From: Limimaricola hongkongensis DSM 17492
GTDB lineage: Bacteria; Pseudomonadota; Alphaproteobacteria; Rhodobacterales; Rhodobacteraceae
Length of the DNA: 64,000 bases
NCBI RefSeq assembly: GCF_000600975.2
Contig: NZ_KK088650.1
Coordinates: forward strand, 682,001-746,000
Direction of reading: 5' to 3'
The notes beneath the pieces are model-generated. The model was not told where the DNA came from, made no database searches, and saw only the letters and a program-made list of their open reading frames with translations. Below are positions 9,391-58,612 of this stretch, in pieces. The position numbers and the translations under genes were made by a program. Each line of letters starts with the position of its first letter. The first letter of the stretch is position 1.

Positions 9391-9451
9391 GGTCGGGGAA
9401 GCGGTCATCCGGTAGGCCTGCCCCGTAACCTCATGCGCAGGGAGACCCGCG

Positions 9452-11407
9452 ATGACCGACAAGGGCGAGCGCTCTCCGGACACCGGCCCGGGCTGGCCCC
9501 CCGGCAATCAGTGGCTATGGATCGGGGCCTTCTGGGCGCTGCTGATACTCGGCTCGATCTGGTTCCTGCCAGACACGGCGCCCGAAGAGATCTCCTACAG
9601 CGAGGTCAAGCGCATGATCCAGGCCGGCGACGTCACCAGCGCCGAACTGCAGGAGCATGGCATCACCGTTGCGATCACCCAGACCACGGGCGACGGCGAG
9701 ACGCTGTATCGGGCCGTGACGCCGACGCAGGGAGATCCCGAGCTCCTTCCCCTGCTTGAGCGTCAGCGTGTCGAAGTGAGCGCCAAGGCGCCACGGGACA
9801 TCTCGTTGCTGGGCCTGTTGTTGCCATGGGTCGTCATCCTCGGGGTGTATTTCTGGCTGCAGCGCCGACTGATCGGGCGCATGGCCGGCGGCCTCGGCCC
9901 GGGGGCGGGGGGCTTCGGCCCGGGCGGGCTGCTGGGCGGCCGATTTACCAAGCCGAGCCAACCGGCGCAGAAGGTCACGTTCGACGACGTGGCCGGGCAG
10001 GATCAGGCCAAGCGCGAGGTGGCCGAGCTGGTCGAGTTCCTGCGCGACACGGACCGGTTCCAGCGCTTGGGGGCGGAGGTGCCGCATGGCGTCCTGCTGG
10101 TCGGGCCGCCGGGCACCGGCAAGACGCTTCTGGCCAAGGCGCTGGCCGGTGAGGCCGACGTGCCCTTCTTCTCGACCTCGGGCTCCGAGTTCATCGAGAT
10201 CTTCGTCGGCGTGGGCGCAGGCCGGGTGCGCAAGATGTTCGAGGCCGCAAGGGCCGCCGCGCCTGCGGTGATCTTCATCGACGAACTCGACAGCATCGGC
10301 CGGACCCGCGGCACCGGGCTGGGCGGCGGGCATGACGAACGCGAGCAGACGCTGAACCAGATCCTCGCCGAACTCGACGGCTTCGGCGGGCGCGAGGCGG
10401 TCGTGGTCTTGGCGGCCACCAACAGGCCGGACGTGCTCGACCCGGCGCTGTTGCGGCCGGGCCGCTTCGATCGGCATGTCACGCTCGAACTGCCGGACCG
10501 GGCCGCGCGGCGCGCGATCCTCGCCATCCATGCCAAGCGCCTGCCCTTGACGAACGAGGGTGATCTCGACGCGATCGCGGCCGGCACGCCGGGCTTCTCG
10601 GGCGCGGATCTCAAGAACCTGCTCAACGAAGCGGCGATCATGGCGGCGCGGCGCAGCGGGACCGGTATCACCCGGGCCGATCTGGACGAGGCGCGCGACA
10701 AGGTGATGATGGGCACGGTGCGCTCGCTGGCGATCCGCCCGGAGGAGCGGCACAGGCTCGCGGTCCACGAGGCCGGGCACACCGCCGTGGCCTTCTACAC
10801 GCCCGGCGCCGATCCGCTGTTCAAGGTGACGATCATCCCGCGCGGCCGCGCGCTGGGCGGCACACATATGCTGCCCGAGGCTGAGCGGCACACGCTCGAC
10901 GAAGCCTATCTGCGCGGGCAGCTCGTCACCATGCTCGGGGGACGGGCCGCCGAGCGGACCTTGCTCGGCTCGGTCAGCTCCGGAGCCGACGACGACATCC
11001 GCCGGGCCACCGGGCTGGCCCGCGCCATGATCGCGCGTTGGGGTATGGACGAGGCGCTCGGGCCAATCGATCTGAAGCAGAGCGAGGATCATCCCTTCAT
11101 CGGCCAGTCCATCGCGCAGCCGCGCAGCCATGCCGACGAGACGGCGGCCCGGGTCGACCGGGCGGTGATGGCGCTGCTCAAGGACGCGGAGCGACAGGCA
11201 ACGGCGATCCTCGAGGCGCACCGCCCGGACATCGACGCTCTGGTCGAAGCTCTGGAGGCGCGGGAAACCTTGGACGCCGACGAAATCCGACGCTGTCTCG
11301 ACCCGGACGCCAAGTCGGCCGGCATCGACCCGGTCTCCGCCAACCCGGACAGCGTCCCTGAGGTGAAGCGCAACGTCGCCGCGGCCGGAAGGAGCGGCGC
11401 CGCTTGA
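9452..11407 (+). CDS. ftsH: ATP-dependent zinc metalloprotease FtsH
   Basis: This 651-residue membrane AAA+ protease degrades membrane and misfolded soluble proteins. Two N-terminal membrane helices (about 21-40 and 118-136) flank a periplasmic loop. The AAA+ module has Walker A GPPGTGKT at 218-225, the pore loop FVG at 251-253, Walker B VIFIDE at 273-278, and the second region of homology with arginine fingers at about 322-341. The zinc site HEAGH is at 439-443. The ATG is preceded by GCAGGGAGACCCGCG. It sits behind an FNR-type box, among chaperone and stress genes. It is probably a second, stress-specific FtsH, because housekeeping ftsH usually follows tilS or sits near folP; that is inference. 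A soluble distant paralogue lies at 30794-33163. Confidence 0.95.
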
Positions 11408-26284: not shown

Positions 26285-26312
26285 TTGCCCCCGTTTCACC
26301 GGACACTCAGGC
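26285..26312 (+). repeat. Left terminal inverted repeat of the IS3-family element
   Basis: The sequence starts TTGCCCCCGTTTCACCGGAC and ends CACTCAGGC. It pairs with 27598-27626 apart from one mismatch near the tip and one missing G in the middle. Confidence 0.85.
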
Positions 26313-27177
26313 GGTTACGGTTTGAGCTGCGATGAATTCGCGGGGCGAGCGCATCTTCAGCCCTGAGTGCGGGTGATGGGTGTTGTAGTCCTCGAACCAG
26401 CCGGCGAGCAACTCGAGGACAGTAGCGGCATCCGGAAGCGGCGTGACGTAGACGTAGTCGCGCTTCAGGGTTTTCACGAAAGCCTCCGCGATGCCATTGC
26501 TCTGGGGGCTCTTCACCGGCGTGTAGCAGGGCTTCAGGCCCAGCTGTCGGGCGAAGATGCGGGTGTCCTTGGCGACGTAGGGCGAGCCATTGTCGCTGAG
26601 TATCTCGACAGGATGCGGCGCTCGGTAGCTGCCGAAGCGGGCCTCGACGGCCTCCAGCATCATGTCGCGGATGTCCGAGCCGCTGATGCCGGCGTTCACC
26701 ACGGCCCGCCAGGCGATGATCTCCCGGTCATGCGCGTCGATGAGGAAGGCTCCTCGGACGACATCGCCGTTCCAGCAGGTGAACTCGAAGCCGTCCGAGC
26801 AGTGAGCAGGTGCGGCGCCACTGGTTCAAGCCCACCGGCGAACGAATGTTCGAGCGTATCGTGATGACCTTGCCCTCATGCGTCTGCTCCGACCGCTCGG
26901 TGTATCTGCGCGCCAGCAGTAGGTCGTGCGCCTGCATGATGCGGTAGACCCGTTTATGGTTCACGGGCGCGGCGCCATCGGCCCGAAGCCGTCGGTTCAG
27001 AACCGCCGCGATGCGCCTGTAGCCATAGGTCGGCCGCGCCGTCACGATCGCCGAGATCAGCGGAAGCACCGCCGCGTCTTGCGCTTTGTGATAGCGCCGA
27101 CGCGGCTTCGCACTCCCGTTCAGCCGGGCATTCAGGTTCGAGCGGGAGACGCCCAGCGTCTCGGCCACGGCCTTCAC
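26307..27177 (-). pseudogene. IS3-family transposase OrfB, frameshifted
   Basis: Two minus-strand frames carry one integrase. The 5' part (from 27177) has RPTYGYRRIAAVLNRRL and the HTH region of IS3 OrfB. The 3' part (to 26307) has the DDE pieces ILSDNGSPYVAKD and SNGIAEAFVKTLKRDYV, where Asp and Glu are catalytic. The middle, normally CSDGFEFTCWNGDVVRGAFLIDAHDREIIAW, is readable around 26700-26800 in the second frame. At about 26805-26845 a short extra segment (SPVGLNQWRRTC in the first frame) precedes the frame change. The element probably cannot transpose by itself. Confidence 0.8.
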
Positions 27178-27575
27178 CGGGAACCGCCCTTGGGTTGGTG
27201 CGCAGCACGCGCGAGCCAGATCGGTTTTTTTAACCGCGACTTGTCCAAGGCTTCCTTGAGGATCTCGACCTCGAGCGTCTTGCGCCCGAGTTGCCGCTCC
27301 AACTCGCGGATGCGCTCTTCCATCTGCCGGACAGCACGGTTGCTGGTAACGTCGTCATCTCCGGACACGGCCACGGCTCCCCCATCCAGCATCAGGCGCC
27401 GCCAACGATACAACAGGTTTGCCGCCACGCCATTGCGGCGCGCGACCACCGAGATGCTGGCGCCATCCTCCAGAGTCTCCTCGACGATCCGAAGCTTTTC
27501 GGCCGAGGACCAGCGGCGCCTACGGCCGCCGTCGGTGATGATCTCGTAGTCAGACATAAGCACGTGCTTAGGCAT
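27174..27575 (-). CDS. IS3-family transposase OrfA
   Basis: This 133-residue protein starts with a helix-turn-helix (RRWSSAEKLRIVEETLEDGASISVVARRNGV) and continues with a coiled coil (VRQMEERIRELERQLGRKTLEVEILKEALDKSR), the usual OrfA design for binding the inverted repeats and pairing with OrfB. Its end overlaps the start of OrfB by four bases. The ATG at 27575 has GGAGG about 10 bases upstream; an internal ATG at 27557 is a possible alternative. Two palindromes cover the translation start region. Confidence 0.88.
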   Translation of the reverse strand: MPKHVLMSDYEIITDGGRRRRWSSAEKLRIVEETLEDGASISVVARRNGVAANLLYRWRRLMLDGGAVAVSGDDDVTSNRAVRQMEERIRELERQLGRKTLEVEILKEALDKSRLKKPIWLARAAHQPKGGSR

Positions 27576-27998: not shown

Positions 27999-28104
27999 AA
28001 CTGCGGCGGAGCTGGCCGAGGCCGCACGGGCGGGCTTCCGACCTGCAGGCGCGGTTGGTCTTCGTAGGCCGATGCCCGGCAATGATCCCGACGATTAGGT
28101 TTTA

Positions 28105-28331
28105 GGACAGGGCGCGTCGGGTCTCGCTGCGAGCAGTTACCGGTGAGCTGCGGATCCCGTCGGAGCAAAGACGCTATAGTGACTATGATCAGGGGTTCAT
28201 GAACTTGGTCTGGGACGCAACGAAGCCGCTCGTCAGAACTGAGAAGGCCATGGCGGCACTCGTGGTGCTGGATGCTGTACGGGTCAGCGCTGAAGCGTGG
28301 CGGGAGGTGAAGCTCGATGGCCGCGACTAAC
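28105..28331 (+). pseudogene. Unidentified gene remnant
   Basis: A stop-free plus frame runs from after a TAG near 28103 to a TAA at 28329-28331 (RVSLRAVTGELRIPSEQ, then YDQGFMNLVWDATKPL, then TEKAMAALVVLD). The residues look coding, but there is no ribosome binding site. The piece resembles the 3' end of a larger metabolic enzyme, perhaps of the Gfo/Idh/MocA type, but I cannot confirm that. It lies next to another decayed gene, so I treat it as debris. Confidence 0.3.
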
Positions 28332-28405
28332 TTCGGCCATTTTTGCAGATTTGCTTGTAGGACGAGCCGGGGGGGCGCAGAACGTACGTGCGCTGTTGGC
28401 GTCAT

Positions 28406-29851
28406 TTAGGCTGATCCTAGGTCCCCGTCGAAATCGATGTCGAAATCGGGAAGTTCCGCGCGCGGAAAGGCGTTCCCAATCGATGCTGCGTCTTGCTGTT
28501 CGACTGCCTCTAGACTCTCCTCGATACGAGGCGTTCCAATCCGCTTTCCGAGTAGGCGCCGTTCGAGTTTAGCGACGCCATCTTGTTCGGGCCGCTGAAT
28601 TACAGCGAATATTCTTCCATCAGGGTGATGTTCGACCCGCACGAGCCGACCCTTCGAGGTCTGGATGAGTGGAGCGAGCTGTCGGAGGCGGTCAGCCAAG
28701 GTCAGGTGCTGACCTTGACACTGAAAAGTTCGGCCACTTCCCGTATGGTCTGTGCCATCCGAAGAAACTCCTCCCTCTGCGCATCCATGCTGGCCTTCAG
28801 CTCGTCTCGGTCTGTCTGGATCATGCGCAACTCCTCCTGCAGGTCTCGCAGGATCGTATGGACGCGGATCAGCATACCGTGCCCGCTCGGATCGGTCTCC
28901 GTTTCCAGCAGATCGAGCAGCGGCAGCAACTCGTCGAGCTTGCCGTCCATCGTGTTCATCTTCCGCAGCACGAGGCTGTCGTGCTCCAGCGGTTCGATCG
29001 GGGAGGGCGGAGGGTTGCTCTGAGACATGCGAAAGCCTTTTCTCTGGGGGAAGGGATGCGTCGTACTGGGCCAGCTGTCGCATGGCGTCGCGTAGTTCGA
29101 GCAGGCTGTTCAAGAGGCGGAATCGCTTTACCAACCGATACCTTCGCTCGAACTGTCGGGGATAGTAGGCCTCTCCGAGCTGGCCTAACCGGCCCTCGAA
29201 GCCATGGTTGCCGACCTCGAATGACATTGCACGATAACGATTGATGCTAAGTGTGGCGTCGTAGCCCGCCTCAGACAGGCCGGCGATCAACGCTTGGTGG
29301 GAGTCGGGTACCAGCCGGCGGAACAGGTCTGACAGCACGGCAACGAGCCGCGCTGCTCCGGGACGCGCTTGGCGTCGCTTCGGTACGTGCGGCACAAGCC
29401 GGGGCGGCGCTGCAGGATCGAATGCCTGCAATAGGGGCTGCCCGAAGGCTTCGCGCAGCTTGCGATCGTTCGCGTTCGACTGTGCGCACGTCAGGTTCAA
29501 GTTGATCGGTCGACCGAGAAACGTGACCTGCGCGACAGCGACATGGAAGTGGTCGCAGGTCCGGTCGGTATGGCGAACGGCTGCCCACGGGATGGCATGC
29601 GGGTCTATCCCGCGATGCGACAGCTCGGTTGCGATCATTCGTAGTGCGACGCTGTCGGCCGCACGTGTCCCCTCGGGCAGCGAGAGGGTGATGTGTAAGA
29701 ACGGCCGATCGCCTCCCAACCGGACGAGGCGCTCGGCCAGGTCATCGCGGCCGCGCCAGTAGAGTGATCCACCTAGAGGCTTTGTTCCTGCTTTGTACAT
29801 GTAGCCCGTCAGTTGCCGGGCATCCTCCACTTCCCTGTTATGTGCCCGCAT
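28406..29851 (-). CDS. Relaxase/mobilization nuclease (MobA/VirD2-like)
   Basis: The open frame is 481 codons. The first ~270 residues form a conjugative relaxase: an N-terminal Tyr pair (GYMYKAG, Tyr17/Tyr19), FLHITLSLPEG, and the metal-binding histidines in RHTDRTCDHFHVAVAQ. These nick oriT and stay bound to the DNA 5' end. From about residue 275 to 385 the frame becomes Arg/Ala/Gly rich, while the other frame at 28702-29028 looks like a real protein. The last ~100 residues (LADRLRQLAPLIQTSKGRLVRV onward) look coding again. Either the relaxase is fused and overlapped by a nested gene, or there are three separate genes. The start overlaps the MobC-like gene by 14 bases, so both are cotranscribed. 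Confidence 0.72.
   Translation of the reverse strand: MRAHNREVEDARQLTGYMYKAGTKPLGGSLYWRGRDDLAERLVRLGGDRPFLHITLSLPEGTRAADSVALRMIATELSHRGIDPHAIPWAAVRHTDRTCDHFHVAVAQVTFLGRPINLNLTCAQSNANDRKLREAFGQPLLQAFDPAAPPRLVPHVPKRRQARPGAARLVAVLSDLFRRLVPDSHQALIAGLSEAGYDATLSINRYRAMSFEVGNHGFEGRLGQLGEAYYPRQFERRYRLVKRFRLLNSLLELRDAMRQLAQYDASLPPEKRLSHVSEQPSALPDRTAGARQPRAAEDEHDGRQARRVAAAARSAGNGDRSERARYADPRPYDPARPAGGVAHDPDRPRRAEGQHGCAEGGVSSDGTDHTGSGRTFQCQGQHLTLADRLRQLAPLIQTSKGRLVRVEHHPDGRIFAVIQRPEQDGVAKLERRLLGKRIGTPRIEESLEAVEQQDAASIGNAFPRAELPDFDIDFDGDLGSA
28702..29028 (-). CDS. Small coiled-coil protein overlapping the relaxase frame
   Basis: This 108-residue frame lies entirely inside the relaxase open frame, in another phase. 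It starts MSQSNPPPSPIEPLEHDSLV and continues with a long amphipathic charged region (LLPLLDLLETETD; ILRDLQEELRMIQTDRDELKASMD). It ends FSVKVST. The heptad-like Leu/Ile spacing suggests a coiled coil. Its composition looks more protein-like than the relaxase phase over the same DNA. A plausible role is mobilization accessory factor, but no family is recognised. The coding potential of the two phases needs codon statistics to settle. Confidence 0.55.
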   Translation of the reverse strand: MSQSNPPPSPIEPLEHDSLVLRKMNTMDGKLDELLPLLDLLETETDPSGHGMLIRVHTILRDLQEELRMIQTDRDELKASMDAQREEFLRMAQTIREVAELFSVKVST

Positions 29852-30293
29852 CGGAATGCCTCACATGGTCGATGACCGCCTGCATGGTGACGTCGAGCCG
29901 ATGGGCGAGATCGATGGTCTTGCGGCGGGAGAGGGGGCGGTCATCGGGGCGGTGGTGCAAGTCGCTGGCGAGCGCGAGGATGCGCCCGAGAAGCGCTTCG
30001 AGGTCATCGTGCCTCGGCATACTCATCGCCGCCTCGCAGTTGACGAGGTGTGTCGAAAGACTTGAACCGGCCGCATTTGCCCGCTCGGTCATGGCCCGAT
30101 GACGCCTCGCCGTTATGCGGACCTTGACCATTTTTTCTTTCCGCCCGTCGTCTGGTCCGACGTCCGGCAGGATCGGCAAGACGCCCGGCGGCACCCAAGT
30201 ATTGTCGCGATCCTCGAACACGATGGATGAGGTTACGTCCTGCTTGGTGTCATCTGACCCTGTCGTCACGTTCGCACCTGTTTCGTCAGCCAT
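29838..30293 (-). CDS. MobC-like relaxosome accessory protein
   Basis: This 151-residue protein has a disordered acidic N-terminus (about 1-50) and then VKVRITARRHRAMTERANAAGSSLSTHLVN, matching the ribbon-helix-helix-like region of MobC/relaxosome accessory proteins, which bind oriT and melt it for the relaxase. A consensus AGGAGGTGAGCT lies directly before the ATG. The gene ends inside the relaxase gene start (14-base overlap). A candidate oriT lies upstream at 30567-30615. The MobC call comes from the helix pattern and context rather than a full-length match. Confidence 0.7.
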   Translation of the reverse strand: MADETGANVTTGSDDTKQDVTSSIVFEDRDNTWVPPGVLPILPDVGPDDGRKEKMVKVRITARRHRAMTERANAAGSSLSTHLVNCEAAMSMPRHDDLEALLGRILALASDLHHRPDDRPLSRRKTIDLAHRLDVTMQAVIDHVRHSDAGT

Positions 30294-30793
30294 AGCTCAC
30301 CTCCTGTCCGCCACCGTCGATCGCCCACCGGGATCATCGATATGGCCTACATCATAGAGGTCGCCCTCTGCGTGTAGGAGAGGGTATCGGTCATGCGACA
30401 CGCGAAACCTGTGGATTGTCGGATTCCGTTCGACGCCCTTTGGATCGGAGCGACGGCACCTGCATCGTCTTGGCAGCTTGCCGCGACCGAACGTCCCCCC
30501 GGATCGGCGCGACAGGTCGTCGTATTTCCCTAGTATCGTATTTCGATTTTGATACCGGGTTTTTCTCCGCCTGGCCCGTCGGCGGGGGGTTGTAAGGACC
30601 TAGGAAGTGGGCCCTGTCCAGTCGCGGGAAACACTCTGGACACTGTCTTCTACTATGGAAACGCCCCGGCCGATGGTCAGGGGATCCGCCGCCCTTGCGA
30701 AGGCTGGCACCTGCATGGCGGGAAGTCGTCCCCGAGGGAAAACGCCCGGACAAAACGCCCGGGCCATATATGTTTTCCGCAGAAAGTCGAACG
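30294..30793. other. Noncoding region between mobilization genes and cargo
   Basis: About 500 bases lie between the MobC-like gene start and the end of the AAA+ protease gene. No open frame here has a protein-like composition. Contents: a possible nic-like sequence and small inverted repeat at 30567-30615, and the promoter of the mobilization operon. Confidence 0.5.
30567..30615 (+). other. Candidate origin of transfer (oriT)
   Basis: GAAGTGGGCCCT at 30604-30615 matches the RSF1010 nic-region core TAAGTGCGCCCT at 10 of 12 positions. A small inverted repeat (CCGCC at 30567-30571 and GGCGG at 30581-30585) lies upstream, on the side where RSF1010-type oriT sites carry their hairpin. It faces a MobC-like/relaxase operon. 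The arms are short, so this is a suggestion only. Confidence 0.35.
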
Positions 30794-33163
30794 TCAGGGC
30801 TTTAGTTCGACGGGCTCTCCAAGCAGCGCTAGCAACGCCTCGCCCTCGATCTCCTCCTCGACCAACAGCCTCTGGGCGAGCCTCCGCAACGCATCGAGAT
30901 GCGGCTTGAGCAGGTGGCTTGTCGCTTTCTCGGCCGCATCCAGCCGCTTCCGTACTCGAGCTGCAAGGGCGCAGTCGAGGGCAAGATGCTGAGTCGATCC
31001 CGGGATCCAGAGAGGTCCTTGGCCACCCAGACCGAACACGGTTTCGATTCGGAGTGCGGTCTCCGTGGCCATTGCGAGATCGCTTCCCTCGCCGCCGCCC
31101 GCACCAGCTGAAACGTCGCCGAGCAGCATTCGCTCGGCGGCGCGTCCGGCAAGTAGCGTCTGCAGCCGGGCTTCGAACTGAGCCAGCGTCTGCGGCTCGA
31201 TCAACGTCTCGACCTCGACCATGCCGCCGGTGAGCGTCAGCCGCATCGCCGTGGGGCGAGTGATCTCGAGCAGGTGGTGCGCCAGCGCATGTCCCGCCTC
31301 GTGGATCGCGATGCGCTCACGATGCGGAGCGATACTCCGGGGCCGCTGGCCGTCGAGCGCCTGCTGCAGATCCATGTCGTCGATCGGTCGTCGAGCCGCT
31401 CGCGCCGTGGCTCTTGCCTGTCGAATGAGCGCGGCGATGCCAGCTGCTGAAATCCCCGCCGCCTGTCGGGCGAATGGCCGCAGATCAATGTCAGGTAGCT
31501 CGCACCCCAGATGATGGCGCAGCATACCCGCGATCTGAACCGGGCGCGGCAGCGGCAGTTCCAAGATGCGCCCGAGGCGGCCCGGACGGCGCAGGGCGGG
31601 ATCGACGAGCTCGGGCAGGTTGGTAGCGCCGACGACGATCACGCCCTCGCGGCCGACGACTCCGTCGAGCAATTCCAACAGCGTCGCGACGACCTTGTTC
31701 TCGTAAGCAGCCCCGCGATCGCTGCCGGCCGCGCTGCGATTGCCGATCGCATCGACCTCGTCGACAAACAAGATGCAGCCGTTCGGCGCTCGCCGTGCCT
31801 CTTCGAATGTCGCCCGTGCCGCACGTTGCATGTCGCCGAGATGCCCGGTCGACTGCCACTGCGCATAGGAAGCGGCAATCAGCGGCACACCGGCGGTCCG
31901 GGCCAACGCTGTTGCGAGCATCGTCTTGCCGGTGCCGGGCGGTCCCCAGATGAGCCATCCGGTTTCGATGTCCGTCCATGGCAGATCGCCGGCGCGCCAG
32001 GCTTCAAGATCCGCCATGAGCTGGACGAGCGGATCATGCACGGCCTGTGGCAAGTGTAGATCCACCAAGCCCAGTCCGGCGCCGCCCTGATCCCGCTGCA
32101 TGCGCTCGGCCTGACGCGTCAGTGCGTCGGTGGCCGCAAAGGGTGTCGATTGGCGTAGCGCATAGACCAGCCCGTCGGGCGAAATCGCCGCCAGTGCCGC
32201 GGGGGTGGGCAGCCGCCTACGGATCTCCGTTTCATGCAGGTAGCCAGTCGCGCTGCACAAGCGTCGCAGCATTGCCAGCAGCAGATCGGCGTCGAGCGGA
32301 GGAAGTGCCACGATGGGCAGACCAAGCGCTTGCAGCTGCGGGCTCAGTTGATCGCGGCATTCGACCATGATGACAAGCGGCTCTTGGCGGCGCAGCTCGG
32401 GCAGTGCGTCCTGGGGCCGATTGGCGCGGCGATGCCGCAGGCCTTCTCCGCAGTCGTAGATCAGCGATCCGAGGGACGGGATCGCGGCCGGCAGGTCTGT
32501 GCGCATCAAGGGGCCGAGTAGGACGATCTGCTCTTGCGGGGCCGTGCGGATCAGCCGGGCCAACTCCTTCAAAGCCGCCTCCGTCTTCACACTGGCGGGT
32601 CCGGGACCAGTCTCGATGATCGTCACAGCGGTTGGGGAGAACAGCTGCGCGATGTGATTCTCTCGGGCGAGCGCCACGCAGAGTGGTAGTAGGTCGATCA
32701 GATCCTCGAGCGTCGCGGGGGGGAGCGCCCGCATCTGTGCGCCATGCTTCTGTATGACAGCATAGAAGTCTACACCGCGTGTAGCGGCCGCGGCGATCTC
32801 GGTCGCGCTGCAACCGATGGCGGTGGGGCAGGGCGGACCGAATGAGACCTCCGCATCTGGCGCGACTGGAACGGGGCCTGGGTCCTCGATTTCCGGAAGA
32901 ACGACCGGACCGCCGATGATCGCTTCGACGGCCTCATCGTATGCACCCATGGTTTGCCGGTACTGACGGTGCGCGGCGTCGTCGGCATGGTGCCAGTCAG
33001 CCAACGCGGTGGCATGCGCCTCGGCCGCTTTGCGCGCCATCAGCCAGTCGAAGAGCAGCAGACCCAGAGCTTGGTTGTCGAGGTTGGCGGGGACACCAGC
33101 TGAGCTGAGCAGGGCCATAGGGGTGATGCAGGTGGTCGAGGCAGGGCGAGCGATCAGGGGCAT
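30794..33163 (-). CDS. Soluble FtsH-like AAA+/M41 metalloprotease on the mobile element
   Basis: This 789-residue protein has no membrane helices. Residues 1-390 are an unrecognised helical/mixed region (QEQIVLLGPLM and PLVIMVECRDQL suggest a degenerate P-loop-like fold). The AAA+ module follows: Walker A GPPGTGKT at 407-414, Walker B CILFVDE at 463-469, second region of homology GATNLPELVDPALRRPGRL at 512-530. A peptidase M41 domain carries zinc site HEAGH at 621-625 and a candidate third ligand Asp695. FtsH proteins normally have two N-terminal helices; this one replaces them with a large domain. The ATG at 33163 has GAGG upstream. It lies 148 bases downstream of a putative nuclease gene and next to mobilization genes. 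The function is unknown; a defence or plasmid-stability role is inference. Confidence 0.85.
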   Translation of the reverse strand: MPLIARPASTTCITPMALLSSAGVPANLDNQALGLLLFDWLMARKAAEAHATALADWHHADDAAHRQYRQTMGAYDEAVEAIIGGPVVLPEIEDPGPVPVAPDAEVSFGPPCPTAIGCSATEIAAAATRGVDFYAVIQKHGAQMRALPPATLEDLIDLLPLCVALARENHIAQLFSPTAVTIIETGPGPASVKTEAALKELARLIRTAPQEQIVLLGPLMRTDLPAAIPSLGSLIYDCGEGLRHRRANRPQDALPELRRQEPLVIMVECRDQLSPQLQALGLPIVALPPLDADLLLAMLRRLCSATGYLHETEIRRRLPTPAALAAISPDGLVYALRQSTPFAATDALTRQAERMQRDQGGAGLGLVDLHLPQAVHDPLVQLMADLEAWRAGDLPWTDIETGWLIWGPPGTGKTMLATALARTAGVPLIAASYAQWQSTGHLGDMQRAARATFEEARRAPNGCILFVDEVDAIGNRSAAGSDRGAAYENKVVATLLELLDGVVGREGVIVVGATNLPELVDPALRRPGRLGRILELPLPRPVQIAGMLRHHLGCELPDIDLRPFARQAAGISAAGIAALIRQARATARAARRPIDDMDLQQALDGQRPRSIAPHRERIAIHEAGHALAHHLLEITRPTAMRLTLTGGMVEVETLIEPQTLAQFEARLQTLLAGRAAERMLLGDVSAGAGGGEGSDLAMATETALRIETVFGLGGQGPLWIPGSTQHLALDCALAARVRKRLDAAEKATSHLLKPHLDALRRLAQRLLVEEEIEGEALLALLGEPVELKP

Positions 33164-33311
33164 GGTGACCTCATCATGTTTGGAGGATGCAGGGGATCGG
33201 TCCGATGCCGTGGGGCATCAGTAGAGGTTGTTTCCGGAGAGTAGAGATTTGGTGGGCGGTCAGCGTGTAGGGGCGGCCAGCTTTTTTGTGGGCAAGTACG
33301 TGCGGCCGGTG

Positions 33312-34628
33312 TCAGTCTGGCAGTCGGGGAAACAGGCGCCGGAGGACGGGGCGCCAACGCTGCTCAAGGGCATCGGCGCGCCGTGGCACCTGGCCGATGG
33401 CTTGCAGGTTTCGCGAGACCTTGTCCCACGTGCTCCGGCGCGCCATCCGCCCTGCCGCCTCGACGGTCGAGTTGCCCACCACGGCGATCACCCGGCTCCA
33501 GTCGCGCAGGCTCGGCGCTTCTAGGGCCGAGTTCAGGATCGCCGCGGCCGCGTCGTCGGCATAGCCAGAGGGAGCGGCCTTGCGGCCGGTAAGTAACGTA
33601 ACCAACACCGGCATGATACGATCAAACCCGTCCTGCCGCGCGTCGTACCAATTCGCCTTCACTCCGCAGCTTTGTGCGAGCAGGGTAAATGCGGCACCGG
33701 CAGCGCGGCTATCGCCTCGGGCTAGAGCATCGAGCAGGGCGCGGGCCAGCGGATCTGTGGCGATGCTTGGGTGCCTGTCAGGCTCGTCGAGACCGAGGAA
33801 GGCTTGCACGGCGTCGAGCCCGACCAGTTCGCTGGTCCACTCCAGCCGGTTGTCGACTTGGGTCACTGTCACGCGGTGCAGCCGCATCGCCCCCGCCTTC
33901 TTGCTCTCAGCTAACGCGTCGTCATCGAGTGCAAAAACCGTCCCGCCCTGCGGCCAGTAGATGTCTTGGAAGCCCTGCAGGGGCAGCGAAGCGTTCAACC
34001 TTGCCTCGTCCATGACCCACAGTAGGGCGATGCGGGCTTCTGCATAGAACTGTGTCCTCCCGGCAATGGTCGCCATCTGCGGCGAGGCGAGTTGCACCTC
34101 GAACGCGATGCGTTCGCCGGAAGCCAGCATGGCCAGCACGTCCGGACGGCGAAGCCGCCGATTGGCGATCACGGGCTGTTCGGTCGCGACCGAGGTGACC
34201 TCCGCATCCCCATGCAGAGCGTCAACCAAGCCCGCTTTCAACGCCTTGTGTCGCGTGCCCTCTTGGCGCCCTTCGAACTGGCGCGCATTGATCGCATCAG
34301 GTGTCATGCTTTCCTCGGTATTGAACAAGCAGCCTACGGCACGACTGTTCCTGGCATGGTAGAACCGGGCGCGGCGGCCGCCCAACTCGCGACTCGAACG
34401 GACGCTCTCGGTTCGTACGAGCAACGGGCTATTGCAGGACACGCAGCGGAACGCAGGCGTCTGTGCCACATGTGACAGCGTCGTAGTCCGGCGCAGCTTC
34501 GACAATTCGGGAGCATCGAGGGGATCAAGCAGGGAGGAGGCGTAGGCCATGTCGCCATCGGGAAAGCGGCGGCAATCGAGAACGACGTCGAGGAGGCGAG
34601 GGACGGCAGGGGGGAGAGGGGTCAGCAC
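33312..34628 (-). CDS. CoiA/DUF6035-like putative nuclease with zinc-binding N-terminus
   Basis: This 438-residue protein starts at a GTG with AGGAG six bases upstream. Residues 62-100 hold CVSC (Cys62, Cys65), His91 and Cys100, a spacing consistent with a zinc-binding module that opens competence-protein CoiA-like nucleases. Next comes ARQFEGRQEGTRHKALKAGL, then RRPDVLAMLASGERIAFEVQL, which fits a PD-(D/E)xK pattern: Asp163, Glu177, Gln179 in place of Lys. The C-terminal ~200 residues are helical with no family I know. It precedes the FtsH-like protease on the same strand, so the two are likely coexpressed; the divergent XRE gene may regulate them. DNA cleavage is predicted from the motif only. 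Confidence 0.7.
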   Translation of the reverse strand: MLTPLPPAVPRLLDVVLDCRRFPDGDMAYASSLLDPLDAPELSKLRRTTTLSHVAQTPAFRCVSCNSPLLVRTESVRSSRELGGRRARFYHARNSRAVGCLFNTEESMTPDAINARQFEGRQEGTRHKALKAGLVDALHGDAEVTSVATEQPVIANRRLRRPDVLAMLASGERIAFEVQLASPQMATIAGRTQFYAEARIALLWVMDEARLNASLPLQGFQDIYWPQGGTVFALDDDALAESKKAGAMRLHRVTVTQVDNRLEWTSELVGLDAVQAFLGLDEPDRHPSIATDPLARALLDALARGDSRAAGAAFTLLAQSCGVKANWYDARQDGFDRIMPVLVTLLTGRKAAPSGYADDAAAAILNSALEAPSLRDWSRVIAVVGNSTVEAAGRMARRSTWDKVSRNLQAIGQVPRRADALEQRWRPVLRRLFPRLPD

Positions 34629-34786
34629 GGCGAACTCCTAGATTTCAGCAGGCCGCAGAAGCTCACCCGAAGTCGCCCAATAGGCGCTACGGCGTTTGCG
34701 TCTTTGAACCTCTTTCGTTATGTCTCATACATATCGATCTCGACTCGCGAAGTAAAGTATCAAACATCATAAAGTGCGTCCAAGAC

Positions 34787-35059
34787 ATGATGACTATCGA
34801 GCAGGTGAAAGCAGCCCGCCTATTTCTGCATATGGATCAACGGCAGCTGGCAGAGCTATCGGGTGTATCCCTTCCCACTATTCAACGGATCGAGAACCCG
34901 CAGTTCGGTCCGACCCGCTCGTCCGTTAAGATTGTCACTGCCGTGAAAGAGGCTCTGGAAAGAGCTGGTATAGAATTTTTGCCTATGACCGATGATGCAG
35001 GCGAGGGGGTTCGTCTAAAGGCGCGAGGGGAAGGGCCACGACTGGCTAGCCGTCAGTAG
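34787..35059 (+). CDS. XRE-family transcriptional regulator
   Basis: This 90-residue protein is a single helix-turn-helix domain: IEQVKAARLFLHMDQRQLAELSGVSLPTIQRIENP (recognition helix SLPTIQRIE), followed by a short helix and a charged tail. It is transcribed away from the nuclease/protease pair, with a 158-base AT-richer gap between, which likely holds both promoters. Such regulators commonly repress a divergent cargo operon. ATG codons at 34787 and 34790 are both possible starts; no strong ribosome binding site is seen. Confidence 0.85.
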   Translation: MMTIEQVKAARLFLHMDQRQLAELSGVSLPTIQRIENPQFGPTRSSVKIVTAVKEALERAGIEFLPMTDDAGEGVRLKARGEGPRLASRQ

Positions 35060-35139: not shown

Positions 35140-36532
35140 GGTAGTGTCCCGTCACGTGGTGGACTTTCACGCTGCGCTGACGGTGTAACCGGGGTGGCCA
35201 TCGAGGACGTCGGTTATGGTGGAGTTTGCGGACTTCAACCACGGACCGAGGGAGACCCCGATGACCGACACCAACATGCCCCTGATCGAGCTGCTTCAAA
35301 AGCACGATGAGGGGGACTTTCTCCGCGCTGTGACCGAGGCGGTGCTCCAGACGCTGATGGAGCACGATGTCGAGGGTCTGATCGGCGCGGGCCGCTACGA
35401 GCGCGGCGACGGCCGCCAGACCTATCGCAACGGCTACCGGGAGCGAGAGCTGAAGACGCGGCTCGGTGCCTTGAACTTGCGGGTGCCCAAGCTGCGGCAG
35501 GGCTCCTACTTTCCTGGCTTCCTCGAGCCGCGTCGCACCTCGGAGAAGGCGCTGGCGGCGGTGATCCAGGAGGCGTGGATCGGTGGGGTCTCGACCCGGA
35601 AGGTCGACGATCTGGTGCAGGCGATGGGGCTGTCGGGGATCTCCAAGAGCACGGTTTCGAAGCTCTGCAAGGACATCGATGAGCGCGTTCACGATTTTCT
35701 GGACCGTCCCTTGGCTGGCGATTGGCCCTACCTGTGGCTCGACGCCACTTACCTGAAGGTGCGTCAGGGCGGCCGCATCGTGTCTGTCGCGGCCATAATC
35801 GCCGTGGCCGTGAACACGGATGGACGCCGTGAGATCATCGGCCTCAGCATCGGCCTCAGCATCGGCCCCTCGGAAGCCGAGACCTTCTGGACCGACTTCC
35901 TGCGCAGCCTGAAGAGCCGGAGCCTGGCCGACGTGAAGCTGGTCATTTCCGATGCCCATACCGGCCTCAAGGCCGCGATCGCCCGGGTATTCGAGGCGAC
36001 CTGGCAACGCTGCCGGGTCCACTGGATGCGCAACGCGCTCGCTCACGTGCCGAAGGGGCAGCACACGGTGGTTGCCGCCGCGATCCGTCAGGCGTTCACC
36101 CAACCCGACCAGAAGGGCGCCATCGAGGTCTGGCGCCACGTGGCCGACCAGCTGCGGCCGCGCTGGCCGAAGCTCGGCGCCCTCATGGACGAGAGCGAGG
36201 CCGACATCCTCGCCTACATGGCCTTTCCGGCTCAGCACCGCACGAAGTTGCACAGCACCAACCCACTGGAACGTCTCAACAAGGAGGTGAAGCGGCGGGC
36301 CGATGTCGTCGGCATCTTCCCGAACGAGGAGCCCATCATCCGCCTGATCGGCGCGGTGCTCTTCGAGCAGAACGACGACTGGCAGAGCCAGCATCGCTAC
36401 ATGCAGGTCGAAGCTTTTGCGCTCATCGATGCCGCGCAGATCGACCCGCTTCTCAGCCTATCAACACAGGCCGCCTGACAGATGATCCGCAATGACCATC
36501 CTGGAATTTACACCAGCTTGACGGACGTGACC
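35140..36532 (+). mobile_element. IS256-family insertion sequence
   Basis: The 1393-bp element is bounded by imperfect inverted repeats. The left end begins GGTAGTGTCCCGTCACGTGG. The right end, read inward, begins GGTCACGTCCGTCAAGCTGG. It carries one transposase gene and is flanked by a perfect 8-bp direct repeat TTAACTCT. The intact repeat and transposase suggest a recent insertion next to the XRE gene. Confidence 0.92.
35261..36478 (+). CDS. IS256-family (Mutator) transposase
   Basis: This 405-residue DDE transposase contains [37 protein letters not shown], the typical N-terminal DNA-binding part. The catalytic Asp lies in [17 protein letters not shown], the second in [14 protein letters not shown] with the following [11 protein letters not shown], and the C-terminal Glu in [26 protein letters not shown]. 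All catalytic motifs are intact. One oddity is a 12-base in-frame tandem duplication near 35845-35868 giving GLSIGLSIG where relatives have a single copy. The ATG at 35261 has GAGGGAGACCCC upstream. Confidence 0.94.
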
Positions 36533-54169: not shown

Positions 54170-55555
54170 TCATGCCGTGGCCTCCCGCAGCACATTCTGG
54201 GGCCGTAGCTTCGCAAGTTTCCTGAGGTTCTGGGCGATGGCGGCGAGGAGAAACTCGTCCTTGGCGCCGTTGGGGCCACGCAGGCGTAGCCGGGTCAGGC
54301 CGAGGATGCGCTTCAGGTGGGCAAAGAGCATTTCCACCTTCTTCCGCTTGTCGCGGGACACCTTGTAGGCCTTGGTCTTGCGGCATTCGCGCGCGAACTC
54401 GCGTGCTTCCTCGTGTGGCTCGCGTGTCACGTATCGCGCCTCCGCTTTCGGGCAGCAGACTTCCTTGGATGGGCAGGCTTGGCAGGTGGCCTTCAAGGCA
54501 CGGTATTTCTTCCGTCCGCCGGCGTCCTGCCCCCGGGTCGGATCGGAGTAGTTCCGACGGAATTGCCTGAGAGCATGGCCCTCGGGGCAGATGTATTGAT
54601 CGTTCGCCTCGTCCCATTCGAAGTCGGACCGGGACCAGGTGCCATCGGTCCGCTCTGATTTGTCGATGACCGGGATGAAGGGGATGATGCTGCGCTTCTC
54701 GACCAGCCATCCGAGGTTCTCGGCGTTGCCGTAGGCGGTGTCGGCGGCCAGCCAGTCCGGCCGGATACCGAACCGCTTCTCCGTCCTGTCGAGCATTGTG
54801 CGCGAGGCCCCGACTTCGGCCTGACGGATTGCTCTCGTCGCCTCGACGTCCATGATGACCGCGCTCTTGGTGTCGATCAGGTAGTTGGTGGCGTAGGCAA
54901 AGTAAGGACGGCTTTCCTCGGCGCGGGTCCATTGCGCGGCCGGATCGGACTTCGCCACGAACTTCGGCTGGACAGGCGACGCGGCCCCGAAGGCGGCATC
55001 GTCGAGTGTCTCCAGGTATTCCCGCGCCGCCCTGTTTCCGACCTCACGCGCGCGCTCCGGACTCCAATCCTCGGCCGCGATCGAGCGGACCTTGTTGGCG
55101 TCGGCAGAGATCAGGCTCGCGTCCACGGCGAAGCCCTCGCCGGACACGAGGTCTTCCTTCAGACAGCGCTCGACCGTGGCTTCGAAGGCCTGACGCAACA
55201 GGTTGCTCTCCCGGAACTTGCCATGGCGATAGCGCGAGAAGGTCGAGTGATCCGGAACCTTCCGCTCCAGACCCAGTCGGCAGAACCAGCGATAGGCAAG
55301 GTTCAGATGGACCTCGTCACAGAGGCGACGTTCCGATCGGATGCCCATGACGTAGCCGATCACCAGCATCCGGATGATGAGTTCGGGGTCGATGGATGGA
55401 CGGCCAAGGTGGCTGTAGAAGGGGCGCAGCGCCTCCCGCAAGCCGCCGCAGTCGAGAAACAAGTCGATCTCTCGCAGCATATGGTTGGCCGGGACGTGCC
55501 GCTCCAGATCGAACTCGTAGAACAGCTGCGCCGGAGCCTCCTGCCTGCCCATCAT
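54170..55555 (-). CDS. IS1182-family transposase
   Basis: This 461-residue transposase starts MMGRQEAPAQLFYEFDLERHVPANHMLREID and has the DUF772-type N-terminal domain (GRPSIDPELIIRMLVIGYVMGIRSERRLCDEVHLNLAYRWFCRL). Catalytic region pieces are GFAVDASLISADANK, IRPDWLAADTAYGNAENLGWL (Asp) and a C-terminal DDE-type Glu in KVEMLFAHLKRILGLTRLRLRG. A Cys cluster (CQACPSKEVCCPKAEARY) typical of this family is present. The frame is intact, so the element could still be mobile. Confidence 0.93.
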   Translation of the reverse strand: MMGRQEAPAQLFYEFDLERHVPANHMLREIDLFLDCGGLREALRPFYSHLGRPSIDPELIIRMLVIGYVMGIRSERRLCDEVHLNLAYRWFCRLGLERKVPDHSTFSRYRHGKFRESNLLRQAFEATVERCLKEDLVSGEGFAVDASLISADANKVRSIAAEDWSPERAREVGNRAAREYLETLDDAAFGAASPVQPKFVAKSDPAAQWTRAEESRPYFAYATNYLIDTKSAVIMDVEATRAIRQAEVGASRTMLDRTEKRFGIRPDWLAADTAYGNAENLGWLVEKRSIIPFIPVIDKSERTDGTWSRSDFEWDEANDQYICPEGHALRQFRRNYSDPTRGQDAGGRKKYRALKATCQACPSKEVCCPKAEARYVTREPHEEAREFARECRKTKAYKVSRDKRKKVEMLFAHLKRILGLTRLRLRGPNGAKDEFLLAAIAQNLRKLAKLRPQNVLREATA

Positions 55556-55617
55556 CTCGAAACCCTCCCATCCCCTCAGGAATGAGTGAATCGAAGGACT
55601 TGCCGCGCCGCAACACA

Positions 55618-55630
55618 GACTTTTTCAACA
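55618..55630 (-). repeat. Right inverted repeat of the IS1182-family element
   Basis: GACTTTTTCAACA, exact reverse complement of 54054-54066. Confidence 0.8.
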
Positions 55631-55787
55631 GCATCGGCGGATTGCGGACCTTCGCTGCGAACCAGCATTCGAAAGCGGATCATCAAGAAGCGGAATTTCA
55701 GGAAAAGCATTCGAGCGGATCTCAACGCGATATGCGTTGCTGGGTTAAAGACCTCGGCTTATGCTACAGATAGCAACAGGAGACGCC

Positions 55788-56600: not shown

Positions 56601-56785
56601 CTTTTGGAATGAGCGTTTTCGCTCGGTACCCTTCAAGAGCATGTTTGTCCTATTTCACCATTCAAGGCAGCTTGGCATATGCTCGGGTTACCGCCGCCCA
56701 CCGAGCCACAGCACCGTCTGGTCGATTTCACTTAAAATTTAATTATATTGGACAGCCAACCTGTGACTAGCGAGAAGTTTTCAGC

Positions 56786-58219: not shown

Positions 58220-58612
58220 CCGTTCCCTAATATGGGCTGGAAGCGGCACTCGATACGAAGGGCAGGAATGCGGGCTGCGACCGCAGCATCGTGATCAGCT
58301 GTTGGATGTCTCCTTTGGGCCGGTCGCGTCGATTACCCCGGCGCTGCCGTCTAAATTTGCGTACTCCGTTCTCTGCGCATAGCTGCCGTTGGTGCTCGGC
58401 GCGGCGAAGACCGGCAGTCCGCCCGGCGTGGCGGACAGCTGGAAGTTCGCTGCGCCTTATAAGAACGACGCTTGAAGGCTGCTTGCGGGCATTCACAATG
58501 CTTGGCGCGAAGATTTTTCGGGACGTGTCGTGCCCAGCATGGCCGCCGTACCCCGTGCATTCCATACATAGCAGCAGGATACTCTGAAGCTGTTACGCAA
58601 TATTTGTAGGAA
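58220..58612. other. Intergenic region with no recognised gene
   Basis: About 390 bases after the AT-rich island and before the 3' end of the beta-lactamase-fold gene. A minus-strand frame reads GDIQQLITMLRSQPAFLPFVSS, which looks protein-like but has no start or known relative. It may be a remnant marking the island's right border. Confidence 0.35.

What the first reader, a model, noticed from the sequence alone, without database searches (positions are those of the whole stretch)
30567..35059. Mobilizable cassette pairing a soluble FtsH-like protease with a putative nuclease and an XRE regulator
Next to a MobC/relaxase module lie three genes: a 789-residue AAA+/M41 protease with no membrane helices, a 438-residue CoiA/DUF6035-like protein with a zinc-binding N-terminus and PD-(D/E)xK-like residues, and a divergent single-domain XRE regulator. 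Protease-nuclease pairs under a repressor on mobile DNA are a common design for defence or maintenance systems. I know of no described system with this exact composition. The motifs are seen; the joint function is inference.
Basis: partly seen in the sequence, partly recalled or inferred. Interest (0 to 1): 0.75.

Follow-up and report, generated by a model that had tools for sequence, protein, structure and literature searches.

The report
Mobile nuclease–protease gene module
A DNA-cutting-type enzyme and a free-floating cousin of the FtsH protease sit side by side on mobile DNA, and across related marine bacteria the protease stays the same while the cutting enzyme is swapped for unrelated ones, which looks like an undescribed defence or self-preservation module.

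Summary
In Rhodobacterales, soluble FtsH-like AAA+/M41 proteases usually end a fixed gene order: divergent ribbon-helix-helix (RHH) gene, ~170-aa unknown protein ("C2"), nuclease-type gene, protease. Three unrelated families fill the nuclease slot: Zn-ribbon/GIY-YIG-like, PDDEXK_5-like, and the window's CoiA/DUF6035-like type. Of 77 protease loci with enough upstream sequence, 67 have such a gene directly upstream. Of 57 GIY loci away from contig edges, 53 have the protease next. Nuclease type changes at least 11 times on the protease tree.

The window copy is reduced: coiA-like gene, protease, MobC, relaxase; no C2 or RHH. It is shared with Limimaricola cinnabarinus, with dN/dS 0.13 and 0.19 for coiA and protease. 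The XRE gene is real, but its membership is unsupported.

Genes flanking the module match many more PADLOC families than genes of arbitrary regions (147 against 7; unmatched control). Best reading: a nuclease-based defence or element-exclusion system restrained by its own protease. Anatomy is shown; mechanism is inferred.

The parts
33312..34628 (-). CoiA_nuc/DUF6035-like PD-(D/E)xK nuclease-type gene (438 aa, GTG start), occupying the exchangeable nuclease slot
   Evidence: Pfam DUF6035 and CoiA_nuc above cut-off; C62, C65, R160, P162, D163 and Q179 invariant in the six-sequence alignment; dN/dS 0.128 against L. cinnabarinus
30794..33163 (-). Soluble FtsH-like AAA+/M41 protease (789 aa), constant component of the module
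   Evidence: Pfam AAA and Peptidase_M41; HExxH and Walker motifs; no N-terminal TM; Foldseek match to FtsH cytosolic structures, E about 1e-22, TMt up to 0.72 in the rows shown; dN/dS 0.194 over 664 codons
33164..33311 (-). 148-bp gap between coiA-like stop and protease start; same strand, consistent with one transcription unit (inference)
   Evidence: Sequence
29838..30293 (-). MobC/NikA-like accessory mobilisation protein
   Evidence: NikA-like E 0.005, below cut-off, and position 5' of the relaxase; conserved in L002, dN/dS 0.17
28406..29851 (-). MobA/VirD2-type relaxase, end of the conserved cassette
   Evidence: Pfam Relaxase 28.3 bits, cut-off 24.6; the L002 homologue clusters with the relaxases that follow the module in L041 and L076
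28037..34648 (.). Whole block conserved with Limimaricola cinnabarinus L002 37-6668
   Evidence: blastn 84.9% over 6641 columns, single block
34787..35059 (+). Divergent XRE-type HTH gene; adjacent, but membership of the module not supported
   Evidence: HTH_3 match; no homologue in 89 other loci and outside the L002-conserved block

Best explanation
The window holds a reduced, CoiA-type member of a mobile-element-borne nuclease-protease module. In the complete module a divergent RHH gene and a small helical protein (C2) precede a nuclease-type gene and a dedicated soluble FtsH-like AAA+ metalloprotease. Most likely it is a defence or element-exclusion system. The exchangeable nuclease attacks DNA of phages, plasmids or rival elements. 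The protease, which lacks FtsH's N-terminal membrane anchor and has a long N-terminal region of its own, unfolds and degrades the nuclease (or nuclease complexes on self DNA, or an inhibitor) so that it acts only when needed; C2 would be an adaptor, sensor or substrate of the protease. Shown: gene order, motifs, partner exchange, low dN/dS, mobile and defence-rich context. Inferred: nuclease activity, direction of proteolysis, role of C2, and anti-phage or anti-plasmid function.
For: (1) A nuclease-type gene directly upstream of the protease in 67 of 77 informative order-sample loci: 48 GIY, 17 PDDEXK5, 2 CoiA; among loci not used to build the HMMs, 35 of 38. (2) Reverse direction, GIY type only: of 63 GIY loci in 390 genomes, 6 lie at contig edges; 53 of the other 57 have the protease next. 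(3) Nuclease type changes at least 11 times on the protease tree, where 2 is the minimum. (4) In 3 of 7 compared pairs with related proteases but unrelated nucleases, C2 is still 34-47% identical (proteases 55-61%). (5) G117 carries C2-CoiA-protease, with a divergent RHH-like ORF (by eye) before C2, tying the window's CoiA type to the same slot. (6) dN/dS 0.13 and 0.19 for coiA and protease. (7) PADLOC matches at E<=1e-15 among 150 flanking genes: 147 families, with Pycsar cyclase, Drt8/RT, PD-T7-1, HEC-04, BrxA, BrxB, AbiEi and AbiEii among the 25 shown; 150 control genes: 7 families (mad3, mad8, two RtcR models, QatD, ATPase-Toprim_I-B, AriA). (8) 17 of 34 module loci have a clustered relaxase, serine recombinase or tyrosine integrase within about 9 kb. 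(9) Precedent for proteolysis restraining a nuclease: ClpXP in restriction alleviation (abstract openings in listings: PMC4231737; PMC11109961).
Against: No activity data. 10 of 77 loci carry the protease without a recognised nuclease. A sister protease subfamily sits beside a metallophosphoesterase, so the protease may have a more general job. In the other 4 of 7 pairs with different nucleases C2 is only 10-20% identical, and label permutation gave no clear effect of nuclease type on C2 (55 of 500 as large). The window lacks C2 and RHH; no C2 was found in its genome (control 5 of 5 genomes). In L. cinnabarinus the protease reading frame is broken into two overlapping ORFs, by sequencing error or decay. 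Only 2 of 4 CoiA-like genes of the order sample are beside the protease. No known defence gene turned up among 10 window genes scanned. CoiA is otherwise linked to competence (recalled). The defence control is not matched for islands. Some family members have hydrophobic stretches up to 2.04. The CoiA fold model failed (pLDDT 35).
Confidence: 0.5

Rival explanations
1. Dual-effector defence: protease and nuclease are both effectors. A trigger activates the AAA+ protease to degrade phage or host proteins while the nuclease cuts nucleic acid; neither regulates the other.
For: AAA+ protease plus nuclease-type gene in loci with many defence-type neighbours. AAA+/protease defence pairs such as IetAS exist (recalled), and an ATP-binding protein plus S8 peptidase pair (IetAS-like by annotation only) lies about 7 kb upstream of the module in Sulfitobacter.
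Against: The protease is the constant part and the nuclease is exchanged, which fits a shared controller better than two independent weapons. Some loci keep the protease with no recognised nuclease.
Confidence: 0.17
2. Mobile-element life-cycle module: the protease degrades the element's repressor (as ImmA does for ImmR, recalled) or incoming-host restriction proteins, and the nuclease serves transfer or integration, so the module helps the element move rather than defend.
For: MobC and relaxase follow the protease in the window and L002, and after an AlpA-like gene in L041 and L076; a serine recombinase lies within 2 kb downstream in L044, L054, L057, L058, L068, L069, L070 and L135, L138, L139; a divergent RHH gene is present in 46 of 65 nuclease-bearing loci with at least 2600 bp upstream.
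Against: Half of the loci (17 of 34) show no clustered mobility gene within range, and mobility genes are of several unrelated types while the module is constant. Repeated exchange among nuclease folds would be unusual for a transfer function.
Confidence: 0.18
3. Addiction or toxin-antitoxin-like module: the nuclease is the toxin, C2 its antidote, and the protease sets antidote turnover, stabilising the mobile element.
For: C2 upstream of the nuclease in 60 of 65 loci; divergent small regulator; mobile context. C2 distance correlates as well with GIY distance as with protease distance (partial correlations 0.45 and 0.45).
Against: C2 is homologous across loci with unrelated nucleases, which a nuclease-specific antidote should not be. 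The window keeps intact coiA and protease with low dN/dS although no C2 was found in its genome; in L002 the upstream part is cut by the contig end.
Confidence: 0.12
4. Hitch-hiking: the protease is an independent accessory (stress or protein quality) gene and the neighbouring nuclease is a selfish (homing-type) gene that repeatedly inserts beside it.
For: PDDEXK_5 and GIY-YIG folds occur in homing endonucleases (recalled); the best, non-significant PDB match of the PDDEXK5 type is an endonuclease, 2ost (E 0.22). Solo proteases exist (10 of 77).
Against: The GIY type is found almost only beside the protease (53 of 57); the reverse was not tested for PDDEXK5. Nucleases lie on the same strand with C2 on the other side, so three families would have to choose the same slot.
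Confidence: 0.08

Closest known systems
FtsH (ATP-dependent zinc metalloprotease, TIGR01241)
   Same: AAA+ plus M41 domains, HExxH and Walker motifs, Foldseek match to FtsH cytosolic structures
   Different: No N-terminal membrane segment in the window protein; residues 1 to about 390 without a Pfam match; 171.7 bits against a family cut-off of 600; encoded beside a nuclease-type gene on mobile DNA
IetAS (AAA ATPase plus S8 protease defence system; composition recalled)
   Same: AAA+ protein coupled to proteolysis; only AAA-domain similarity to IetA
   Different: Protease is a fused M41 domain, not a separate subtilase; partner is a nuclease-type gene; NF042959 79.4 bits against a cut-off of 510
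CoiA / DUF6035 proteins
   Same: Window nuclease passes the Pfam cut-offs for CoiA_nuc and DUF6035
   Different: Other DUF6035 proteins sit in other contexts, e.g. with an HTH and a reverse transcriptase in Leisingera; no such protease found beside the CoiA-like genes of G229 and G343
CMoRE, single-component GIY-YIG type IV restriction (PMC12923530; abstract and outline read)
   Same: GIY-YIG nuclease domain in anti-phage defence
   Different: [quoted passage not shown] no protease named in the abstract
ClpXP-mediated restriction alleviation of EcoKI (PMC4231737, PMC11109961; abstract openings in search listings only)
   Same: AAA+ protease acts on a restriction nuclease that could attack self DNA (works-like precedent)
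   Different: Host housekeeping protease, not encoded with the nuclease; type I R-M has a methyltransferase (recalled)
ImmA/ImmR of ICEs (recalled)
   Same: Element-encoded metalloprotease near an HTH regulator on mobile DNA
   Different: ImmA is a small non-ATPase protease; there is no exchangeable nuclease partner

Membership tests
FtsH family protease | AAA+ ATPase domain fused to zinc M41 peptidase with HExxH | tested here: met
   Pfam AAA 4.9e-31, Peptidase_M41 3.2e-12. In the tree set HExxH in 84 of 87 rows (not in L105, L118, L123) and Walker A in 87 of 87
FtsH family protease | N-terminal transmembrane segments | tested here: not met
   Window protein: highest 19-residue hydropathy 1.60, at residues 280-281. 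In the family the median maximum is 1.51 and the highest 2.04, so a few members are less clear
FtsH family protease | Passes NCBI FtsH equivalog cut-off | tested here: not met
   171.7 bits against 600
CoiA_nuc / DUF6035 | Pfam domain match above curated cut-off | tested here: met
   DUF6035 33.7 (cut-off 22.6), CoiA_nuc 28.1 (cut-off 20.3). The G117 member matches neither at E<=0.1
CoiA_nuc / DUF6035 | PD-(D/E)xK-like catalytic residues | tested here: met
   R160, P162, D163 and Q179 invariant in six sequences; position 177 is E in the window, D in G117. That these are catalytic is recalled family knowledge, not tested
CoiA_nuc / DUF6035 | Nuclease fold confirmed by structure | tested here: inconclusive
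   AlphaFold model unusable, pLDDT 35; no PDB sequence match to a nuclease. Activity not testable here
GIY-YIG (T5orf172/MUG113) for the most common slot nuclease | Pfam domain match | tested here: inconclusive
   T5orf172 in 8 of 23 members, best E 1.5e-5; MUG113 in 6 of 23, best 6.3e-4; the first member is below the MUG113 cut-off; L148 member matches a PHROG endonuclease, E 8.9e-4; no GIY-YIG PDB match
PDDEXK_5 for the second slot nuclease | Pfam domain match above cut-off | tested here: met
   L135 29 bits (cut-off 26.1), homologous to the Rhodobacterales group by HMM, E 3.7e-23; the order members L060 and L048 themselves are below cut-off
IetAS defence system | IetA equivalog plus S8 protease IetS next to it | tested here: not met
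   NF042959 79.4 bits against 510; the adjacent gene is a CoiA-like protein, not a peptidase
Restriction-modification system | Methyltransferase as a conserved partner of the nuclease | tested here: not met
   The recurrent order is RHH, C2, nuclease, protease; type II methyltransferase models matched at most 2 of 150 flanking genes each
Known anti-phage system in PADLOC-DB 2.0.0 | Specific match of a module protein | tested here: not met
   Nuclease and C2 representatives: no match at E<=0.01; protease: only AAA-domain matches to IetA, TRIP13 and mad8; XRE: weak HTH matches (E 2.2e-5 to 1e-3)
Integrative mobilizable element | Relaxase plus integrase and defined attachment ends | tested here: inconclusive
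   Relaxase and MobC-like gene present; I identified no integrase or ends at the window locus; IS3-type (by eye) and IS256-type transposase ORFs flank it
Anti-phage activity | Protection in challenge assays | not testable with these tools
   Needs experiment

The most novel reading that the evidence does not exclude
A new class of mobile defence or inter-element-exclusion system in which a conserved chassis (C2 plus a soluble FtsH-derived AAA+ protease, under an RHH repressor) controls an interchangeable nuclease: protease-gated, plug-in restriction without a methyltransferase. The CoiA-like, GIY-YIG-like and PD-(D/E)xK nucleases are alternative payloads of one system, and a sister protease lineage has extended the theme to metallophosphoesterases.
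Probability: 0.45. Interest if true: 0.85.

Novelty: categorically new. Interest (0 to 1): 0.72.

Why it matters
If true, bacteria have a restriction-like system whose self/non-self control rests on a dedicated protease instead of DNA methylation, with nucleases exchanged like cartridges. It would explain the function of a family of FtsH-like proteases without the usual anchor, found at E<=1e-45 in 65 of 390 sampled genomes of one order, and give a genetic handle on how proteolysis can license nuclease immunity. The swap pattern makes it directly testable: the same protease chassis should control unrelated nucleases.

Tried and rejected
XRE as a module component: unsupported. It has no homologue at E<=1e-3 in the 89 other loci's set and lies outside the block shared with L. 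cinnabarinus. Divergent XRE genes do occur at related loci outside that set (L137, L139), and G117 has an XRE gene about 0.9 kb upstream of C2, so a regulatory role in the window is not excluded.

Phage or virus origin: the CoiA-like query found no relative in viral contigs and neither did the GIY alignment, although one viral contig reached through the protease, L148, carries C2-GIY-protease.

Spread beyond the order: the GIY profile matched 0 of 385 class-sample genomes, against 48 of 390 in the order sample. The protease profile matched 12 of 385 including the window's own. Of the 11 others, G652 (L135) has a PDDEXK5 nuclease upstream; G562 and G657 (L137-L139) have a gene of up to about 250 aa with a PD...FELK-like motif seen by eye only (no Pfam match for L137 and L139; the L137 protease is interrupted by a transposase ORF); G712 (L136) has DUF6634 and, by eye, a metallophosphoesterase; the other seven are about 900-aa proteins (one cut by a contig edge) without the module.

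Structure: the N-terminal region of the protease was not resolved (pLDDT mostly under 60 up to about residue 290) and the CoiA model failed. C2 gave no Pfam match above cut-off and no PDB lead. PHROGs gave no match for C2 or the window CoiA, an endonuclease family for the L148 GIY protein, and unnamed families of unknown function for the protease (best phrog_30773, E 3.2e-41).

Does C2 or the protease N-terminal region follow the nuclease? Partial correlations of C2 with GIY and with the protease core were equal (0.45 each). After allowing for core distance, loci with different nucleases differ slightly more in the N-terminal region (2 of 500 label permutations as large) but not clearly in C2 (55 of 500); relatedness is not controlled in this test.

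Limits of the counts. In one search only two candidates per genome were scored, so 65 of 390 is a lower bound at that threshold. Of its 86 places I fetched 83 (three contig-edge places left out); six had under 1500 bp upstream, leaving 77. Some counted proteases are split or partial (e.g. L072, L117, L120). The HMMs were built partly from the loci counted, hence the separate 35 of 38. Near-identical copies (e.g. L058/L121, L075/L085) were not removed. The 53 of 57 was reconciled by hand. The tree (quick search) leaves out the split ORFs L072, L117, L120 and rows under 560 aa. The mobility count (17 of 34) covers only clustered gene families in L002-L004 and the module loci among L040-L077. The defence set took at most five genes of 120-700 aa from each of 30 loci (150 of 155 prepared). 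The control took 150 of 155 genes from 20 regions at round coordinates on long contigs, three of them in genomes whose protease has no nuclease; family counts are inflated by redundant models, only 25 of 147 families were shown, and matching proteins were not counted.


Full report
WHAT IS IN THE WINDOW. The window is position 682001-746000 of contig C5 of a 3.19-Mb genome. Its order sample contains a contig of the same length as a Sagittula plasmid record (G343 contig 3, 273585 bases), and the one related genome contig found for this cassette is Limimaricola cinnabarinus, so I place it in the Rhodobacterales (inference). On the minus strand lie, in order, a CoiA/DUF6035-like gene (33312-34628), an AAA+/M41 protease (30794-33163), a MobC/NikA-like gene (29838-30293) and a relaxase (28406-29851). 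An XRE-type HTH gene (34787-35059) is divergent. IS3-type ORFs (26307-27575, by eye) and an IS256/mutator-type transposase (35216-36478) flank the region.

IT IS NOT A RANDOM ASSEMBLY. Window 28037-34648 matches L. cinnabarinus L002 37-6668 as one block at 84.9% nucleotide identity. Between the two copies dN/dS is 0.128 for the coiA-like gene, 0.194 for the protease (664 codons), 0.17 for MobC and 0.28 for the relaxase, which points to maintained proteins. Against this, the L002 protease frame is broken near its 3' end into two overlapping ORFs. The block stops 20 bases upstream of the coiA-like start codon. There the L002 contig begins with 36 bases matching window 35140-35175, next to the IS256-type gene, which I read as the end of an IS element. 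The XRE gene is outside the block and has no homologue at E<=1e-3 in the 89 other loci searched.

A RECURRENT MODULE WITH AN EXCHANGEABLE NUCLEASE. The protease was searched in 390 genomes of the order: 65 have it at E<=1e-45. The CoiA-like protein is in 4 of 390 at E<=1e-10: the window's genome and G117, where the protease follows directly, and G229 and G343, where no such protease was found in the stretches fetched. Gene calling and clustering of neighbourhoods showed that the protease is usually the last gene of one order: divergent RHH (~60 aa; Pfam RHH_1 for L059), C2 (~170 aa, no family), a nuclease-type gene, protease. The nuclease slot is filled by a Zn-ribbon protein with a GIY-YIG-like C-terminus (T5orf172 in 8 of 23 members, best E 1.5e-5; MUG113 in 6 of 23), by a ~185-aa PDDEXK_5-like protein (homologue L135 passes the Pfam cut-off), or by the CoiA type. 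G117 has C2-CoiA-protease, preceded by a divergent 52-aa ORF that looks like RHH by eye but did not match my RHH HMM.

COUNTS. Of the 86 places, 83 were fetched and 77 had at least 1500 bp upstream; 67 of these 77 have a nuclease-type gene directly upstream: 48 GIY, 17 PDDEXK5, 2 CoiA (its printed totals, 70 of 81, include the four non-sample loci L002-L005). Among loci not used to build the HMMs it is 35 of 38. Among all 75 loci with at least 2600 bp upstream, 65 have a nuclease, and of those C2 is present in 60 and the divergent RHH in 46. In the reverse direction the GIY profile matched 48 of 390 genomes, 64 rows at 63 loci. Six lie at contig edges; of the other 57, 53 have the protease next to them, one has a truncated remnant and three have none. 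Ten of 77 proteases lack a recognised nuclease. The reverse test was not made for PDDEXK5.

PARTNER EXCHANGE. A maximum-likelihood tree of 87 proteases (quick search) needs at least 11 changes of nuclease type among GIY, PDDEXK5 and CoiA, where 2 is the minimum; starred branches alone force 11 changes for GIY against all other rows and 9 for PDDEXK5. The window and L002 form one CoiA lineage; G117 is a separate one. I compared seven pairs with related proteases but different nuclease types. In three, C2 remains clearly recognisable: L057/L076 core 61%, C2 47%; L080/L044 59% and 36%; L082/L044 55% and 34%. In the other four the core is 39-52% and C2 10-20%. The simplest reading of the first three is replacement of the middle gene between a conserved C2 and protease. 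That C2 homologues go with unrelated nucleases argues against C2 being an antidote to one nuclease; the distance correlations themselves do not decide (0.45 with either partner).

WINDOW VARIANT. No C2 was found in the window's genome (92.85% complete); the same profile found C2 in 5 of 5 genomes known to have it. The window therefore carries a reduced nuclease-protease pair. Its MobC-relaxase tail is not unique: the L002 relaxase clusters with those that follow the GIY module in L041 and L076.

CONTEXT. Of 34 module loci, 17 have a clustered relaxase, serine recombinase or tyrosine integrase within about 9 kb. Among 150 genes flanking 30 module loci, PADLOC gave matches to 147 families at E<=1e-15; the 25 shown include Pycsar cyclase, Drt8 and reverse transcriptase, PD-T7-1, HEC-04, BrxA, BrxB, AbiEi and AbiEii. 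Among 150 genes from 20 arbitrary regions of genomes of the same sample there were 7 families: mad3, mad8, two RtcR models, QatD, ATPase-Toprim_I-B and AriA. Family counts are inflated by redundant models, proteins were not counted, and the control regions are not matched islands, so this is an indication, not a measured enrichment. Ten window genes scanned gave no relevant defence match.

BEYOND THE ORDER. In the class sample the GIY profile found nothing (0 of 385) and the protease profile 12 of 385 including the window's own. L135 repeats the pair (PDDEXK5, protease, then a serine recombinase). L137 and L139 have a divergent XRE gene and an unassigned ~250-aa gene with a PD...FELK-like motif (by eye) before the protease; in L138 and L139 a serine recombinase follows. 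A sister lineage, in Bosea L005, L136 and viral contigs such as L149-L155, sits beside a metallophosphoesterase (annotated in L005, by eye elsewhere), with DUF6634 in L005 and L136.

MECHANISM. Most likely the nuclease is the weapon and the protease its dedicated controller, with C2 as adaptor, sensor or substrate. The shape of the evidence (constant protease, changing nuclease, no methyltransferase in the recurrent order) fits a controller that does not depend on nuclease sequence. ClpXP-dependent restriction alleviation is a precedent for proteolysis restraining a nuclease (abstract openings in the listings). None of this is shown biochemically; rivals are a dual-effector system, an element life-cycle module, an addiction module, and hitch-hiking.

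KNOWN SYSTEMS. PADLOC gave no match for the nucleases or C2 and only AAA-domain matches for the protease; NCBIfam equivalog cut-offs for FtsH and the IetA-type ATPase are far from met. Paper searches combining FtsH-like, M41 or AAA proteases with GIY-YIG, nuclease, defence or mobile-element terms, and one for DUF6035, listed no description of such a module. These searches cover open-licence papers only; I saw listings with the openings of abstracts, and the abstract and outline of PMC12923530. I rate the module categorically new in composition, with the functional class inferred.

Noticed in passing
28702-29028 (-), inside the relaxase gene 28406-29851: A 108-aa ORF in another frame of the relaxase gene, conserved in L. 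cinnabarinus (L002 5673-5999, 79% aa identity) and preferred to the relaxase frame by my codon-based gene caller; reminiscent of MobB nested in MobA (recalled).
   Followed up: partly
9416-11407 (+): A second, ordinary-type FtsH lies in the same window; a further match is on contig C7 of the genome.
   Followed up: partly
L005, L136, L149-L156, L162: A sister lineage of the soluble FtsH-like protease sits beside a calcineurin-like metallophosphoesterase (annotated in L005, by eye elsewhere) on a plasmid, a genome contig and viral contigs, with DUF6634 in some.
   Followed up: partly
L054 5543-5980, L064 10809-11306, L065 10745-11158: DUF6634-type genes (one cluster; DUF6634 matched 3 of 150 flanking genes) lie directly downstream of the protease in nuclease-bearing modules too, linking the two lineages.
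   Followed up: no
L050, L062, L073, L075: Several protease loci lie beside the same RNase E/G, Maf and neighbouring chromosomal genes, suggesting a recurrent insertion site.
   Followed up: no
L067, L071: Proteases without a recognised nuclease next to genes that look like TnsA/TnsB of Tn7-like elements (by eye); L071 has a C2-like gene (by eye, not matched by the C2 HMMs) before the protease.
   Followed up: no
L006 9953-13204 (Leisingera caerulea plasmid): A DUF6035 protein is followed by an HTH regulator and a reverse transcriptase: DUF6035 proteins may join other mobile or defence gene sets.
   Followed up: no
55001-59000: A low-G+C patch (0.45-0.52 in 2-kb windows against about 0.6-0.7 around it) with two ORFs, 55788-56600 and 56786-58219, without PADLOC match: probably recently acquired.
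   Followed up: partly
28037-28405: The right end of the block shared with L002 covers the end of an oxidoreductase-like reading in L002 (6372-6980, by eye), so the shared segment may be larger than the cassette and cut in the window near the IS3-type ORFs.
   Followed up: no
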